This document shows positions 26,160 through 48,117 of a stretch of DNA of 52,503 bases, one piece after another. Made by a program: the position numbers and the translations under genes. Position 1 is the first letter of the stretch. Each line of letters begins with the position of its first letter. This DNA is from a virus: the IMG/VR virus record IMGVR_UViG_3300005436_000015, positions 1-52,503 of that record. The stretch is one strand, 5' to 3'. A model generated the notes under the pieces. It saw only the letters and a program-made list of their open reading frames with translations. It was not told the origin of the DNA and ran no database searches.

Positions 26160-26383
26160 CGCAGCCTGCTGTTCACGAGCCGGGCGCCACGGCGCAGCCG
26201 CCTCGGGCTGCCCTTGCACCGCCAGCACAGGCCGTGCCGCTTGCTGTTCGAGCCCGGGTTGCGGCCGGTGCCGTTGCACCAGCTGCACGTCGTGTAGGGC
26301 CACAGCTTCAGCGACACGAGCCAGCTCCCGCCCGCAGCCGCGAACAGGATGACGGCCACCCCGGCCTCCGCCGCACCGCTCAC
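26156..26383 (-). CDS. Membrane-anchored DnaJ-type zinc protein
   Basis: This 75-residue protein starts at GTG 26383, overlapping the FtsK-like gene stop (GTGA). It has an N-terminal hydrophobic segment (EAGVAVILFAAAGGSWLVS) followed by CSWCNGTGRNPG...CWRCKG, a zinc knuckle with Gly turns. The end is Arg-rich. It is translationally coupled to FtsK-like synthesis, suggesting a role at the same membrane complex, which is inference. Confidence 0.55.
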   Translation of the reverse strand: MSGAAEAGVAVILFAAAGGSWLVSLKLWPYTTCSWCNGTGRNPGSNSKRHGLCWRCKGSPRRLRRGARLVNSRLR

Positions 26384-28170
26384 GACCGCCTCGCCTCCTC
26401 GCGGGCCAGCGCCCGCGGCCGGGTCCGCTCCCACTCCCGAAGCTCATCCGGGTCATAGGAGCGGGCCAGCCCCTCCCAGCCCACCGGCTGCGGGAACCCC
26501 GGCCGGTGACTGGCCTTACGGGCCGCGGTCAGGCTGAGCGTCAGGATGCCCAGATCCACCGCATCGGACAGTTTCAGCGCGTCACAGTCAGGCTCCACGG
26601 GGGGCACCGTCACAGTGACATTGCCCAGGTCAGGGCCAGGGTTTTCGCCAAGCGCCGCAGGTGTGACACGGGTCAGGTGCGGCATGCCCGGGATGGGCGA
26701 CGGCCACGGCGTGACCGTGCCGGACAGGGCCAGCTGGCGGGCCTGGTAGCCCGTCAGGAACCCCACCTGTGTCTCGCGGGCTACGCCGCCGGTGACGACC
26801 TGGACGCGGCCCTGCTCGTTGCGCGAGGGCGCATAGGGCACCTCGGGCACCAGCATCTTCCACGTGCTCGCGGTGTAGCGGCCCAGGATCCGGATGCCCA
26901 TCGTCTCGCGGGCCTCACCGGACGCCGACGCCCGCGCCGACATCTTCTGGCCGATGAACACGATGTTGCACAGCACCTGGCGGCCCATGAACGCGGCATC
27001 CTCGATCGCCTCCACCGCAGGCGAGCGGGCCGGGTCGCCCGGCTCGCGGATGTCGTTCCAGTAGGCGCGGAGCCGGTTCATCGTCGCGTTCATCTCCTCG
27101 GCGATGACGATGATCCGCGGGCCGACGTTGGCGTGGACGCGGCCCTCGATGTCCGCCCCGGCGTCGGCCACGTCGTTGCGCCGCTCGATCTCGTGCAGCA
27201 GCCAGATCGCCCCCGCGTGGATCTCTGCCGCCGTCTTGCAGTAGACGACGTTCGGCAGGCCCCTGGCCCAGGACAGGCTGATCCGTTTGTAGTCCCAGAC
27301 CATGACTACCGAGCCCTTGGCAAGCTGCTGGGCAGCTATCAGCCTCGCCGTGGTCGACTTCCCGGACCCTGGCCCCTGCGACAGCATGACGTGCGGCGAG
27401 TCATCGTCCAGGCTCGCCATGACCGGGCGCGAGCCGCGGCCCAGGCCCAGCACCAGGTCAGTGGTCCTTGACTCCGCGAGCGCGGGCAGGATCAGGTCGG
27501 CGCCGACCTTGCGCGGCGGCGCGGGCTGGGCACGGAACCGCACCATGGGCCGGTGCCCGCGCTCATCCCAGGTGACCTCCGGTGCCTCCAGCGCCAGCTT
27601 CGCCTTGACAACGTCGATGACCGCGGCCTTCTGTGCGGGCCTGCTGGCGAAGTCGGCAGGCAGGGCGATCGTCGCACCCGAGCGGTCAGGCTCGACGGCC
27701 AGCCACGATTGCGGGCGCTCGGCCAGCGAGACACCCAGGACGGGCGCCAGGGCCCGGTGCAGCGGGGTCACCCAGCGGCGGTAATGACGCGCCCGGGTGA
27801 TCTTCCGCACGCCCAGCCACGACCCTAGCCCCAGGCCCGCGACGACGATGAAGATGACGAAACCCAAGGTCACAGGCTTATTAACCAGCAGCCCGTACAC
27901 CACGGCGAAAGGCGCAACGGTGGCGGCGTCCCGGATCACCGCCCGGGTCAGGCGCGGCATGTGATGCCAGCGGACGGCGTGCCCGGTCGGGTGCAGCACC
28001 CGCGCGGCCGGGCGGACCCACGTCGCATTGGTGCGGTGCTTGCCGTCGAGCGGCTGACCGGAGAACCAGCGCCACGCGACCGGGCCGGTCCCGTGATGAC
28101 GGCACAGATGGTCAAGGGCAGCTATCAGGGCAGCCAGGACCAGCAACGGGGGCACCAGAAGCCACACCAT
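26380..28170 (-). CDS. FtsK/SpoIIIE (Tra)-like DNA translocase
   Basis: This 596-residue protein starts at ATG 28170. Residues 1-25 and about 90-120 are membrane segments; residues about 180-430 form a FtsK-type ATPase. Walker A is GPGSGKST near residue 270; Walker B is RIIVIAEEMN near residue 355. A DYKR loop and an IEDAAFMGRQVLCNIVFIGQK strand fit the family. It resembles the single-protein double-stranded DNA transfer translocases of Streptomyces plasmids and integrative elements (TraB/TraSA). In a phage it may move DNA at cell division or between mycelial cells. A missing gamma (DNA-sorting) domain or a divergent C-terminus is possible. Confidence 0.9.
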   Translation of the reverse strand: MVWLLVPPLLVLAALIAALDHLCRHHGTGPVAWRWFSGQPLDGKHRTNATWVRPAARVLHPTGHAVRWHHMPRLTRAVIRDAATVAPFAVVYGLLVNKPVTLGFVIFIVVAGLGLGSWLGVRKITRARHYRRWVTPLHRALAPVLGVSLAERPQSWLAVEPDRSGATIALPADFASRPAQKAAVIDVVKAKLALEAPEVTWDERGHRPMVRFRAQPAPPRKVGADLILPALAESRTTDLVLGLGRGSRPVMASLDDDSPHVMLSQGPGSGKSTTARLIAAQQLAKGSVVMVWDYKRISLSWARGLPNVVYCKTAAEIHAGAIWLLHEIERRNDVADAGADIEGRVHANVGPRIIVIAEEMNATMNRLRAYWNDIREPGDPARSPAVEAIEDAAFMGRQVLCNIVFIGQKMSARASASGEARETMGIRILGRYTASTWKMLVPEVPYAPSRNEQGRVQVVTGGVARETQVGFLTGYQARQLALSGTVTPWPSPIPGMPHLTRVTPAALGENPGPDLGNVTVTVPPVEPDCDALKLSDAVDLGILTLSLTAARKASHRPGFPQPVGWEGLARSYDPDELREWERTRPRALAREEARRS

Positions 28171-38272: not shown

Positions 38273-38731
38273 ATGCCCCTTCCGTGGGTGCGTTTGGACA
38301 CAACGTTTCCCTCCAACCCGAAACTCCTGGCGATGCTCAGCGAGGAAAAAGACGGCTACCGGGCTGGGCTCGTCTACCTCTGCGGGCTCAGCTACTGCGG
38401 GGCTCACGGCACCGACGGGTTCATCCCCCGCGAGGCCCTGGGCTTCATCCACGGCCGCCTGTCTGACGCATCACTGCTGGTCAGGTACGGGTTCTGGTGG
38501 ACTCAGCCCGGCGGGTGGCTCATCAACGGCTGGGAGGAGTTCCAGGAATCCAGCCCCGAGACAAAGGCCCGGCGTAAGCGCGCGCAGGCGGGTGCAGCCG
38601 CCCGCTGGGAGGGCCACCAGCCGATGACGAAGGCCGAACGGCAGCGGCGTTACAGGGAACGCAAGGCCGCAAATGGCAACGGAAGCGGTCAGCTCTCTGA
38701 CCTGCGGATTGTGGATAACCAGGGGGCGTGA
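38273..38731 (+). CDS. Replication initiator-like protein
   Basis: This 152-residue protein starts at ATG 38273; the frame is open to 38204 but the upstream part is the repeat region. Residues 1-90 match the N-terminal winged-helix domain of phage replisome organisers: PWVRLDTTFPSNPKLLAMLSEEKDGYRAGLVYLCGLSYCGAHGTDGFIPREAL, then a GGWLINGWEEFQ end. The remainder is basic and helical. It probably binds the adjacent iterons. The gene's stop is inside the first iteron copy. Confidence 0.75.
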   Translation: MPLPWVRLDTTFPSNPKLLAMLSEEKDGYRAGLVYLCGLSYCGAHGTDGFIPREALGFIHGRLSDASLLVRYGFWWTQPGGWLINGWEEFQESSPETKARRKRAQAGAAARWEGHQPMTKAERQRRYRERKAANGNGSGQLSDLRIVDNQGA

Positions 38732-38874
38732 CGATGCTTGTGACGATGCTTAGTGTCCGTTTTGCCCGTTGTGACGATGCTTAGTGACGGTGCTTGTGAC
38801 GGTGCTTGTGACGGTGCTTAGCACCATATATGACCTGCGGAAACATGCTTGTGACGGTGCTTGTGACGGTGCTT
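38728..38874. repeat. Iteron array, probable replication origin
   Basis: Eight copies of the 12-mer GTGACGRTGCTT lie at 38728, 38740, 38771, 38784, 38796, 38808, 38851 and 38863. Three have A and five have G at position 7. Several are directly adjacent. A palindrome GGTGCTTAGCACC and an AT-rich CATATATG stretch (38825-38832) lie between copies 6 and 7, a possible unwinding element. The layout is that of an iteron-type origin next to its initiator gene. Confidence 0.85.
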
Positions 38875-38898
38875 GTTCCAATGCGCGTGGCATTAGCA

Positions 38899-38914
38899 CG
38901 GACGGACGGACGGA
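38899..38914. repeat. Short CGGA tandem repeat
   Basis: Four CGGA units run in tandem just after the iteron array and before the next gene. This may be a binding site or slippage tract; its purpose is unknown. Confidence 0.7.
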
Positions 38915-38929
38915 CTAACGGAGAAACAT

Positions 38930-44531: not shown

Positions 44532-44807
44532 GTGACGATTCTCAAGCCCGGCCCGGTCGAGCGCGCCGCGCGTGCTGAGCTGCGCAAACTCGGCTGCTCG
44601 GTGCAGTCCGACACGTCCGCGGCGCTGGCGGTGTCGCTGGCCCGCCAGATCGACACCTCGCGCGGCGCGGTGGCTGCCGCTGCGGCTGCGGCGCAGCTGC
44701 GGGTGCTGCTGGCCGATCTGAGGGCGGCGGCGGCTGCGGCGAGGCCGGAAAGGGACGCCATCGATGAGATCAGCGCTCGCCGTGCCACCAAGGCCGCTTC
44801 TGGGTGA
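44532..44807 (+). CDS. Small terminase-like protein
   Basis: This 91-residue protein starts at GTG 44532. It is Ala-rich and helical (VERAARAELRKLGC, SLARQIDTSRGAVAAAAAAAQL, LLADLRAAAAAARPERDAI). It directly precedes and overlaps the large terminase by 44 bases, the usual place of the small terminase subunit, and has its length class. Direct family motifs are weak. Confidence 0.65.
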   Translation: MTILKPGPVERAARAELRKLGCSVQSDTSAALAVSLARQIDTSRGAVAAAAAAAQLRVLLADLRAAAAAARPERDAIDEISARRATKAASG

Positions 44808-45693
44808 CCAGCGGCCGCGCCTGTGGTCGGTTCCGCCGTCTGAGGTGACGGAGGGCCATCGCGCGGCTGACCTGGCGTCGCTGGCGGGCCTGGATCTGGA
44901 TGACTGGCAGCGCTGGGTGCTGGCGCAGGGCCTGGGCCGGTCGGCGGGCAAGTGGGCGGCGTTCGAGGTGGCCCTGATCGTGGCCCGCCAGAACGGCAAG
45001 GGCAGCGTCCTGGAGGCGCTGGAGCTGGCCGCGCTGTTCCTGTTCGATGACGTCCGGCTGATCCTGCACAGCGCTCACGAGTTCAAGACGGCCGCGGAGG
45101 CGTTCCTGCGGGTGCGGTCGCTGATCGACGGCCGCCCGGAGTTCGAGCGCCGGGTGTCGCGGATCCGCACGGCGGCGGGCGCTGAGGCGATCGAGCTTCG
45201 CAACGGCAAGCGCCTGCGGTTCGTGGCCCGCTCGTCCGGCTCGGGTCGCGGTTTCACTGCTGACCTGGTGATCCTGGACGAGGCGTACAAGCTGGGCGAC
45301 CAGGAGATGGCGGCCCTCCTGCCGACACTGAGTGCCCGCCCGGATCCGCAGGTCTGGTACACCTCGACGGCGGGCGGCCCGGAGTCGGTGCAGCTGGGCC
45401 GGGTGCGTGACCGGGGGCTGAAGGGCTCTGACCCGTCGCTGGCGTTCATGGAGTGGTCCGCCGATGACGGCGACGACCAGGCCGACCCGGTGGTGTGGGC
45501 GCGGGCGAACCCGGGGCAGGGCATCCGGATCACTGAGGCGTACATCGCCCGGGAGATGGCGGCGCTTGGCCCCGATGCGTTCGCCCGTGAGCGCCTGTCG
45601 ATCGGCGACTACCCGTCCGGCGACGCCGGGTCCTGGGATGTCATCGCCGAGGACGCATGGGGCACCGCGGCGTCGCCCGGGGCCCGGATGTGA
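44764..45693 (+). CDS. Large terminase, ATPase part
   Basis: This 309-residue protein starts at ATG 44764. It carries the packaging motor ATPase: Walker A-like RQNGKGS at residues about 75-81, Walker B LVILDEAY at 168-175, and a coupling motif WYTSTAG at 198-204. Phage large terminases are normally about 450-550 residues, with the nuclease in the same chain. Here the frame stops at TGA 45691-45693 and the nuclease begins at GTG 45690 in a -1 frame. Confidence 0.9.
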   Translation: MRSALAVPPRPLLGDQRPRLWSVPPSEVTEGHRAADLASLAGLDLDDWQRWVLAQGLGRSAGKWAAFEVALIVARQNGKGSVLEALELAALFLFDDVRLILHSAHEFKTAAEAFLRVRSLIDGRPEFERRVSRIRTAAGAEAIELRNGKRLRFVARSSGSGRGFTADLVILDEAYKLGDQEMAALLPTLSARPDPQVWYTSTAGGPESVQLGRVRDRGLKGSDPSLAFMEWSADDGDDQADPVVWARANPGQGIRITEAYIAREMAALGPDAFARERLSIGDYPSGDAGSWDVIAEDAWGTAASPGARM

Positions 45694-46193
45694 GCGAAGT
45701 AGCGTTCGGCGCCGAGATCAGCCAGGACCGCCAGCACTGCGCGATTGTGGCGGCGGGCCGTGAGTCCGGCGGCTCCCGTGTCCTGGTGGACCTGGTCTGG
45801 TATGACCACCCGCGCGGCGCGGTGGCCCGCCTGACGGCGCTGGCGGCGGGTCATGACCCGGTGGCGGTGGTGGTGGATGGCCGGTCGCAGTCGGCGACGC
45901 TGATCCGCCCGCTGGCTGATGCGGGGATCGTGGTGATCCAGCCCGCGACGGCTGATGTTGCGGTGGCGCACGGGGAGTTCCTGGACCTGGTGAACGGCGG
46001 TGGCCTGGCGCACCTGGATCAGCCGCCTTTGACGGCGGCGGCCCGTGCGGCGCAGCAGCGGCCCCTGGCGGGTGCGGCGGCGTGGGAGCGGAAGGTTGCC
46101 GTCGATCAGAGCCCCTTGGTAGCCGCGACGGAGGCGGTATGGGGGTTCCTGCGGTGGGAGGAGCTGGCCGCGCCGGGCGTTTTCGTGATCTAG
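45690..46193 (+). CDS. Large terminase, nuclease part
   Basis: This 167-residue protein starts at GTG 45690, overlapping the ATPase stop (GTGA); the open frame extends back to 45657. It has the RNase H-type nuclease pattern: FGAEISQDR near residue 8 (where an Asp is usual), VVVDGRSQSATLIRPLADAGI in the middle, and SPLVAATEAVWGFLRW near the end. The usual first Asp is Glu. It should cut the packaged DNA. The split might be real coupling, programmed frameshift or a sequence error. Confidence 0.85.
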   Translation: MSEVAFGAEISQDRQHCAIVAAGRESGGSRVLVDLVWYDHPRGAVARLTALAAGHDPVAVVVDGRSQSATLIRPLADAGIVVIQPATADVAVAHGEFLDLVNGGGLAHLDQPPLTAAARAAQQRPLAGAAAWERKVAVDQSPLVAATEAVWGFLRWEELAAPGVFVI

Positions 46194-46432: not shown

Positions 46433-46528
46433 GAGCGTTAGGTGAGGGCTGGGCGGCTCAGGGCAGGGCAGGCGCGGACCGCGGCGACGAGGGACGGGGC
46501 GAGGCGGGGGGTTGAGCGTTAGGTGAGG
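46433..46528. repeat. Repeated 15-bp AGGTGAGG element, two exact copies
   Basis: GAGCGTTAGGTGAGG occurs exactly at 46433-46447 and 46514-46528, 81 bases apart, in the gene-free stretch downstream of the minus-strand cassette. Related elements lie at 47141, 47217, 47301 and 47984. On the minus strand each reads CTCACCT-x-AC. Confidence 0.8.
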
Positions 46529-46613
46529 TTTGCTGGGGTCGGGGCGGGCCAGGCGGGGTCAGGGCGGCGAGGGGCGGCAAAGGGGGGGCGCGCGGCGGTC
46601 CGGAGTGGGCAGC

Positions 46614-47129
46614 TCAGTCCTCGGTTGCCTCCACGGTGATCACGGGCTGGATCCCCGCGCGGCGCTCTAGCTCGGTGAGCCGCTTCTCGGCTTCGGATTG
46701 CCACTGCTCCTGGGAGCGGAGCCGCAGCTCGTTATCGCAGAGCACAAGGTAGACCTTGTGCGCCCAGTCGCGCTGACCCGGCGTCATATCGGTGACCGGC
46801 GCAGTGCGCATGAGGTCAACGGCGTTGGTCATCTTCTTGCGGGCCTGGAGCTGGTAGGCGAGGGCGGCGGGCGCGTAGTCGGAGGGCCGCAGCACGCGGT
46901 AGCCGACACCGCGCATGTTCCCGAGGACGCGCGGGATGTTCTCGCGGGTGAACTGCTGGTTGCAGCGGCGCACGGCCCGGTGGGCGCGTGCCCGGTCATC
47001 GGTTTCGAGCACCTTGGCGATCTCATCGAAGCCGAGGTCGGCTCCGTAGGGCATCTCAACGGCGACGTCGTGGATGACGCGCCACTCGGCGCGGCCGTCC
47101 TCGCGGCGGGGTGAGAACAGGTCGGTCAT
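46614..47129 (-). CDS. Winged-helix-like protein of the minus-strand cassette
   Basis: This 171-residue protein starts at ATG 47129 (frame open to 47180). Residues 12-75 look like a winged helix: WRVIHDVAVEMPYGADLGFDEIAKVL, ARAHRAVRRCNQQFTRENIPRVLGNMRGVGYRVL. Residues 85-160 are a long helix with a coiled-coil tendency (MTPGQRDWAHKVYLVLCDNELRLRSQEQWQSEAEKRLTELERRAG). The start is preceded by the repeated element (47141-47153). It lies antisense between terminase and portal genes, downstream of a RAMP-like gene. Confidence 0.62.
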   Translation of the reverse strand: MTDLFSPRREDGRAEWRVIHDVAVEMPYGADLGFDEIAKVLETDDRARAHRAVRRCNQQFTRENIPRVLGNMRGVGYRVLRPSDYAPAALAYQLQARKKMTNAVDLMRTAPVTDMTPGQRDWAHKVYLVLCDNELRLRSQEQWQSEAEKRLTELERRAGIQPVITVEATED

Positions 47130-47140
47130 CTTGGCTCCGG

Positions 47141-47313
47141 TGTCAGGTGAGGGCGAGCAAGGTACGGCGTGACGTGGCATGTGGTGGGACGGACTGGGAC
47201 GGCTAGGCCCAGGGGGGCGAGGTAAGGGTTGTTACGGGGGGTCGAGGCACGGAGTGTCATGTGCTGGCGAGGCGAGAAGCGGGGAAGCACGACGTGGGTT
47301 GGTCAGGTAAGAG
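47141..47313 (-). promoter_or_regulatory. Start-associated repeat elements upstream of the 171-aa gene
   Basis: On the minus strand CTCACCTGACA lies just before the ATG 47129 (47141-47153), and further copies lie at 47217-47228 (CCTTACCTCGC) and 47301-47313 (CTTACCTGACC). The same element lies before the other minus gene at 47984-47994. Common position and sequence suggest a shared signal for translation or transcription control. Confidence 0.55.
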
Positions 47314-47377
47314 CAGGGCTGGCGCGTGATGGCACGGACCGTGTAGGCAAGTGGAGAAGCGGCGTGGCTGGGGATGG

Positions 47378-47974
47378 TCAGGGCGCTTCAACCAGGGCAT
47401 CAATAAGCGCGTCATACCGCCCATAGCCCTGGGATCGTGATGCGCCGAGGCCCTCGATGCGCCCGGCGCGTTCCGCGATCTCGGTCAGGTCGCGGACGTT
47501 GAGCAGTGATTCGTCCAGCTCGAACGGGATGCGCACCGCCCAGTCACGGAAGATCGGGTACGTCGTCGGTGACGCACCCCCGGTGCCCCGGATCATGCGC
47601 GTGAGGTGCCAGCTCCCGGCGTCCCACATCGTCTGAGGGGTGCGCGGCCCGTCGTAGATCAGCGGCACGGCCGGGACGGTGACCATCAGCGAGCGGAGCA
47701 CCTGCGTCCCGAGGCGGGATGCTTTCGCGGCGGTTATGAGTGACCGGCGCATGTTCTCCGACGGGATGGCGATGCCGTCGATGTCGGGGATGTCGTAGAA
47801 CGCGCCCATAAACGAGACATAGGCCATCTCCTCGTGCCACTTCTCGGTGCGGCGCTTACTGGGAGTCCCGCGCAGGTCGGCCATTTTCCTGGCCCACGGG
47901 TTCAGCGGGTTGGCGAGGTCGACGTTGTGCAGGAGCAGCGGCTTCGTGCCAACTGCCTTGATCGTGATCTGCAT
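47378..47974 (-). CDS. RAMP/Cas7-like protein (putative)
   Basis: This 198-residue protein starts at ATG 47974. It begins with a strand and long loop (ITIKAVGTKPLLLHNVDLAN), has an IPSENMRRSLITAAKASRLG segment resembling the IPGSSIKGALR motif of Cas7/Csm3-type RAMP proteins, and ends with GLGASRSQGYGRY, like the glycine-rich loop GGGRSRGYGRV of that superfamily. Length is near the lower range of a Cas7-like fold. No CRISPR array or other Cas gene is seen. It is inferred to be a single-domain RNA-binding-like protein; the similarity is by motif only and needs a profile search. Confidence 0.4.
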   Translation of the reverse strand: MQITIKAVGTKPLLLHNVDLANPLNPWARKMADLRGTPSKRRTEKWHEEMAYVSFMGAFYDIPDIDGIAIPSENMRRSLITAAKASRLGTQVLRSLMVTVPAVPLIYDGPRTPQTMWDAGSWHLTRMIRGTGGASPTTYPIFRDWAVRIPFELDESLLNVRDLTEIAERAGRIEGLGASRSQGYGRYDALIDALVEAP

Positions 47975-47983
47975 AGCAATCCC

Positions 47984-48117
47984 TGTCAGGTGAGATCGGG
48001 AAAGGCGGGGCTAGGCTGGCGGAGCGGGGGACTGTAGCGGTTCGGTTGTACTGTGAAGTCTACCCGAATAAGCCGCGCCAAATAGCGAAGTCTATTCGTT
48101 TAGGACGTGGTTTCTTT
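47984..48117. promoter_or_regulatory. Regulatory gap between RAMP-like gene and portal
   Basis: It holds a copy of the repeated element (47984-47994) before the RAMP-like gene. GAAGTCTA occurs twice (48055-48062, 48087-48094) in direct repeat, and CGAATA (48065-48070) with TATTCG (48093-48098) forms an inverted pair. These AT-richer sites just upstream of the portal gene may be a divergent promoter with operators; no hexamers were fixed. Confidence 0.5.

What the first reader, a model, noticed from the sequence alone, without database searches (positions are those of the whole stretch)
47378..47974. RAMP/Cas7-like protein encoded without CRISPR genes
The end of the protein has a GLGASRSQGYGRY loop and the middle has an IPSENMRRSLITAAKA segment like those of Cas7/Csm3 proteins. 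A free-standing RAMP-like gene in a phage packaging region with a winged-helix partner could be an RNA-binding or anti-defence factor. The similarity is by motif only.
Basis: inference. Interest (0 to 1): 0.72.

Follow-up and report, generated by a model that had tools for sequence, protein, structure and literature searches.

The report
VIPR guide system with flipped repeats
This phage gene belongs to VIPR, a newly described CRISPR-like system that phages use against rival phages, and its guide arrays follow a different rule from every other copy I examined, so the targeting code of this young family is not fixed.

Summary
The ORF at 47378-47974(-) encodes a RAMP/Cas7-fold protein (model pLDDT 95; best PDB matches Csm3 and type VII Cas7). 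It is a homolog of Vipr from phage SUSP1, the protein of the VIPR systems described in a 2026 preprint. The 171-aa neighbour is the matching vap accessory gene. Decoded by the published 1-nt-skip rule, two match sibling-phage genes: terminase Walker B (11 consecutive dinucleotides) and the portal start. Guides of close relatives match terminase (13/13 and 17/18).

This lineage (window plus six IMG/VR contigs, one clade) is unusual. About 75 other VIPR loci carry GGY-NN arrays on the vipr strand. Here the GG register is on the opposite strand, so the vipr strand reads NNNCC. The third base has lost the pyrimidine rule and follows the target's 'skip' base (33 of 60, 20 expected, z 4). Thumb and loop residues constant elsewhere (R/K134, R137, D178) are replaced. 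I infer a VIPR variant with a changed, probably C-based, triplet code. Which strand is transcribed, and whether the preprint's supplement already covers it, I could not test.

The parts
47378..47974 (-). vipr: RAMP/Cas7-fold protein, homolog of SUSP1 Vipr
   Evidence: PDB 36pp hit; model and fold search
46614..47129 (-). vap: 171-aa accessory protein, probable winged-helix DNA-binding protein (longer ORF from 47180 possible)
   Evidence: Conserved next to vipr in relatives and aligned with MakoManhole gp77, LittleE gp33 and the SUSP1 gene downstream of vipr; weak OmpR winged-helix match E 0.03
47989..48048 (.). Guide array V6, upstream of vipr, about 12 units; decodes to the start of a sibling portal gene. 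RNA strand not settled
47306..47385 (.). Guide array V5, about 16 units, overlapping the vipr stop codon; target not found
47221..47305 (.). Guide array V4, 17 units; decodes to terminase Walker B of sibling phages
47146..47220 (.). Guide array V3, 15 units, in continuous 5-nt phase with V4 and V5; target not found
46522..46616 (.). Guide array V2, about 19 units, downstream of vap; target not found
46441..46520 (.). Guide array V1, about 16 units; target not found
48057..48062 (-). Promoter-like -10 element TAGACT just before the first array; a second copy about 32 bases further upstream
   Evidence: Conserved in five of six loci, absent at the other strand's array starts

Best explanation
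This is a VIPR operon of a temperate actinophage, inserted between the terminase and portal genes. Inferred mechanism: Vipr coats short RNAs made from pentanucleotide arrays in every gap of the operon, and Vap supports DNA binding. The RNA-protein complex base-pairs with double-stranded DNA of related phages, five guide bases spanning three target bases per unit, and represses packaging and capsid genes. In this lineage the code has changed. The constant dinucleotide is GG on the strand opposite vipr, so an RNA from the operon strand would carry CC, and the third base is free and follows the target, giving triplets instead of doublets. Shown here: homology, fold, arrays, strand switch, loss of the third-base rule, matches to target genes, replacement of otherwise constant residues. 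Inferred: expression, which strand is the RNA, repression as the outcome, and that the residue changes cause the code change.
For: Homology and fold. vap. Arrays: the five highest period-5 peaks of the whole window lie here. Strand switch in this clade only. Consensus. Targets: V4 exact pattern hits four contigs, all in terminase; V6 portal; L009 13/13 and L010 17/18 terminase; only the 1-nt skip spacing gives scores above 7, and each guide is at background on its own genome. Third base. Residue replacements. One origin on the Vipr tree. Operon-strand promoter; co-oriented gene block in L011.
Against: No expression data. The strand opposite vipr still reads GG, so antisense transcription is not excluded. 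The third-base effect rests on five guides and is absent in V4. The last five V4 units do not match the terminases found, and V1, V2, V3 and V5 have no target yet. The six loci are related, so they are not independent samples.
Confidence: 0.8

Rival explanations
1. The RNA is still G-based: the arrays are transcribed antisense to the operon from other promoters and carry GGN-NN units, so only the array orientation and the third-base rule have changed.
For: GG is the constant dinucleotide on that strand, as in all other VIPRs, with the same order of strictness p1 above p2. L051 has GGC arrays on the strand opposite vipr, so such arrays exist.
Against: No -10 element at any of 22 array starts on that strand, against five of six first arrays on the operon strand. 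In L011 the neighbouring genes run with vipr. Residues constant in GGY users are lost.
Confidence: 0.33
2. The lineage has turned to RNA targeting: a C-based guide complementary to mRNA silences transcripts of competing phages instead of binding their DNA.
For: 11 of 21 tracts prefer the coding sense strongly and none the antisense, whereas other VIPRs show no preference, 25 against 27. The closest folds, Csm3 and type VII Cas7, come from RNA-targeting complexes.
Against: The L009 guide with 13/13 matches lies in the opposite orientation to its terminase gene. The composition test is indirect and the loci are related.
Confidence: 0.12
3. The arrays are GC-rich spacer sequence with chance periodicity, and vipr is a RAMP protein without guides.
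For: The region is GC-rich and no array has been seen as RNA.
Against: Unique period-5 peaks, same design in all seven contigs, and decoded matches to terminase and portal far above shuffled guides.
Confidence: 0.02

Closest known systems
VIPR system of Escherichia phage SUSP1 (type II VIPR, PMC13142463; PDB 36pp)
   Same: Homologous Vipr and vap genes, long gaps with arrays of 5-nt units, decoding with three target bases per unit, targets in competing phages, one array upstream and several downstream.
   Different: SUSP1 arrays read GGY-NN on the vipr strand with a structured 3' tail. Here GG is on the opposite strand, the third base is free, no long tail is seen, arrays run in continuous phase, and thumb and loop residues differ. 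Identity about 25%.
Gordonia and Mycobacterium phage VIPR loci (MakoManhole, Trine, LittleE, prophiBWHA-1)
   Same: Actinophage Vipr at 30-37% identity; where an array is seen it has 5-nt units; MakoManhole and LittleE carry a similar vap.
   Different: GGC/GGT-NN on the vipr strand, with tails that resemble a tRNA T-arm.
Csm3 / Cas7 RAMP proteins of class 1 CRISPR-Cas
   Same: RRM-based RAMP fold with glycine loop and thumb; expected to coat a guide RNA.
   Different: No cas genes or CRISPR array here; about 10% sequence identity; guide made of 5-nt units.

Membership tests
VIPR | Vipr protein homologous to SUSP1 Vipr, RAMP fold with G-loop and thumb | tested here: met
VIPR | Minimal locus with vipr plus a vap gene | tested here: met
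   vap conserved next to vipr and aligned with the SUSP1 neighbour
VIPR | Tandem pentanucleotide arrays in the gaps around vipr | tested here: met
VIPR | GGY/NN consensus read on the vipr strand (the preprint also allows 'a related consensus') | tested here: not met
   GG register on the opposite strand; third position not pyrimidine. The stated strand is my reading of about 75 loci, not a rule given in the preprint
VIPR | Target decoding with a 1-nt skip per NN | tested here: met
   Spacing of three target bases gives 8-14.5; other spacings at most 7. The skip base also tends to match here
VIPR | Structured invariant 3' tail on each vrRNA | tested here: inconclusive
   Only a short recurring element (vipr sense CTYACCTNAC) is seen; no structure test made
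VIPR | vrRNA expressed and bound by Vipr; DNA binding and repression | not testable with these tools
   Needs sequencing, pull-down and reporter assays
CRISPR-Cas class 1 (Cas7/Csm3) | CRISPR array and accompanying cas genes | tested here: not met
   No CRISPR-like array in the tandem repeat search and no cas model among ten window proteins
CRISPR-Cas class 1 (Cas7/Csm3) | RAMP fold | tested here: met

The most novel reading that the evidence does not exclude
A VIPR lineage has switched its guide RNA from GGY+NN doublets to CC+NNN triplets: the constant bases changed from G to C and a third target base per unit is read, through replacement of thumb and glycine-loop residues that contact the constant bases. 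The recognition code of RAMP-guided systems would then be open to change by evolution.
Probability: 0.5. Interest if true: 0.87.

Novelty: new variant of a known kind. Interest (0 to 1): 0.74.

Why it matters
VIPR was proposed in 2026 as an ancestor-like relative of CRISPR RAMP proteins, with a GGY/NN code. A natural lineage in which the constant bases, the third-base rule and otherwise constant protein residues have changed together is a ready experiment on how Vipr reads its guide RNA. It would show that the code can be rewritten, and perhaps extended from two to three read bases per unit. The targets found (terminase, portal, probably another VIPR's vap) also extend the picture of warfare between phages to actinophages.

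Tried and rejected
Pfam and PADLOC gave nothing for vipr and vap, and Rfam nothing for the locus. No clade member was found among 84,980 GTDB species; a broader alignment could not be scanned there. Patterns for V3 and V5 (18 bases) had no exact match in IMG/VR, and a 20-base V5 pattern none in genome contigs; this also shows how rare chance matches are. A pure mRNA-targeting reading, suggested by the coding-sense bias, was weakened by the antisense L009 guide. My first permutation test of the third base averaged independent shuffles over targets and overstated significance; it was redone with shared permutations and against codon context. No second VIPR paper was found.

Full report
Observation. 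The window is a virus record. Pfam models hit an integrase, portal, prohead protease and capsid gene, and weakly the terminase, so it is a temperate tailed phage. Its terminase relatives are mostly actinophages. The gene sits on the minus strand between terminase and portal, which are on the plus strand.

Identity. phmmer against PDB sequences hits one relevant entry, 36pp, 'SUSP1 Vipr protein', at E 3.5e-15 over nearly the full length; a profile of 69 relatives hits it at 1e-57. AlphaFold2 gives pLDDT 95 and pTM 0.88. Foldseek's top matches are Csm3 chains; VIA-align gives Z about 10 to type VII Cas7, Csm3 and Cmr4. Vipr is described in a 2026 preprint (PMC13142463): a phage-encoded RAMP homolog, a vap gene, and vrRNAs of YNNGG units whose NN pairs read target DNA with a 1-nt skip. 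The 171-aa neighbour (46614-47129) aligns with the downstream gene in the close relatives, in Gordonia phage MakoManhole (annotated DNA binding protein), LittleE and SUSP1, with weak OmpR winged-helix similarity (best E 0.03).

Arrays. A simple detector of GGY in 5-nt phase finds four vrRNAs in SUSP1, one upstream and three downstream, as the preprint reports. In the window the five highest period-5 GG peaks of the whole 52.5 kb lie in this locus, all on the plus strand (13.6-28.1; next 6.7), and control periods give no such cluster. The arrays fill every gap of the operon: one before vipr, three in continuous phase between vipr and vap, and two after vap. Each begins, read on the plus strand, at GGTRA; a recurring element (CTYACCTNAC in vipr sense) marks these boundaries in the relatives.

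Strand and consensus. In all other loci examined (about 75; Gordonia, Mycobacterium, Pseudomonas and Escherichia phages plus IMG/VR) the strongest array by the ten-unit score is on the vipr strand. In the window and L008-L013 it is on the opposite strand only; L051 has arrays on both, with the longer ones opposite vipr. Logos: other loci p1 G .93, p2 G .87, p3 C .78/T .13; this clade p1 G .97, p2 G .80, p3 C .36/G .32/T .17/A .15. On the vipr strand the clade therefore reads NNNCC. The clade is one branch with support 100 and a long stem of 1.66 changes per site. Residues constant elsewhere are replaced: R/K134 to A, R137 to T, D/E178 (97% of others) to A, and others; the thumb loses about half its basic residues (mean 3.5 against 6.4), and the glycine loop is changed from GDWRPR-type to GASRKQG-type.

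Targets. Reading NN as codon positions 1-2 gives protein-like strings. V4 decodes to [FL]TG[DE]TV[IM]L[DE][DE]A. A 20-base exact pattern from it has four matches in IMG/VR, all in terminase Walker B (GRGFTGDTVILDEA or GRGLTGDTVILDEA), 10-11 consecutive units. Patterns of 18 bases from V3 and V5 had none. I then fetched about 150 sibling contigs by portal and terminase and scored 34 guides, some of them overlapping readings of one array, against 1.7 Mb. With 1-nt skip, V6 matches the portal start (8.0), V4 terminase (11), L008 terminase 3' end (8.5), L009 terminase on the opposite strand (13, 13/13), L010 terminase 3' end (14.5, 17/18); skips of 0 or 2 never exceed 7. The score with a spacing of five is the array matching itself and was set aside. 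Shuffled guides reach 7-8 at most, so V6 and L008 are the weaker cases; all five guides score at background on their own genomes. One L009 guide matches a clade member's vap gene in 9 of 10 units (score 7.5; 300 shuffles up to 6.0; one such case among 34 guides).

Third base. In the matched units the guide's third base equals the target's 'skip' base in 33.4 of 60 cases, against 22.0 by permutation (sd 2.7; none of 20,000 reached it) and 20.2 by codon context (z 4.0). In other VIPRs this base is mostly C or T and can carry little target information. Hence the inference that this lineage uses triplets. The caveat is five guides, V4 showing no effect.

Which strand is RNA. For the vipr strand: TAGACT/TATACT 3-9 nt before the first array in five of six loci, with none at 22 array starts on the other strand and 1.1% expected per start (the loci are related); L011's co-oriented gene block; same-strand arrays in nearly all relatives; loss of the residues constant in GGY users. 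For the other strand: the constant dinucleotide would still be GG, and L051 shows that opposite-strand arrays exist. I put the vipr strand at about two in three.

Function. Inferred from the preprint's experiments on SUSP1 (binding to double-stranded DNA, transcriptional silencing, phage defence) and from the targets here: repression of packaging and capsid genes of competing phages. The coding-sense bias (11 tracts against 0) could hint at RNA targeting, but the L009 match is antisense, so I keep DNA as the likelier target.

Novelty. Membership in VIPR is met on protein, locus and decoding. The GGY consensus on the vipr strand is not met, though the preprint allows 'a related consensus' and mentions staggered overlapping arrays; its supplement was not readable here. 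I examined the 80 best of 210 IMG/VR relatives, so other exceptions may exist. I call it a new variant of a known kind.

Noticed in passing
window 44764-46193; L009 5326-6788; L010 5500-6704: The large terminase is split into two reading frames, ATPase part then nuclease-like part, whose stop and GTG start overlap (GTGA) in all three phages. It looks like a conserved two-gene terminase.
   Followed up: partly
L003, L004, L005, L006 (Gordonia and Mycobacterium phage VIPR loci): The sequence after each guide array contains a tRNA T-arm-like GGGTTCGANTCCC stem-loop; ARAGORN even calls a tRNA-??? at L005 3789-3857, while Rfam finds nothing. It may be a processing signal.
   Followed up: partly
L051 2350-2941: About 70 GGC-NN units lie upstream of vipr on the opposite strand, besides one array on the vipr strand: guide arrays on both strands in one locus.
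   Followed up: no
L009 4480-4577 against L008 2100-2612: One L009 guide decodes to AEWRV.YDHA, part of the vap gene of a close relative (9 of 10 units; shuffles up to 6.0 against 7.5): one VIPR probably aimed at another.
   Followed up: partly
window 38728-38922: Imperfect 12-base tandem repeats (GTGACGATGCTT and TGCTTGTGACGG units) between genes.
   Followed up: no
window 26380-28170, minus strand: 596-aa protein with a weak match to the MADS defence protein mad8 (E 6e-7) and no Pfam hit.
   Followed up: no
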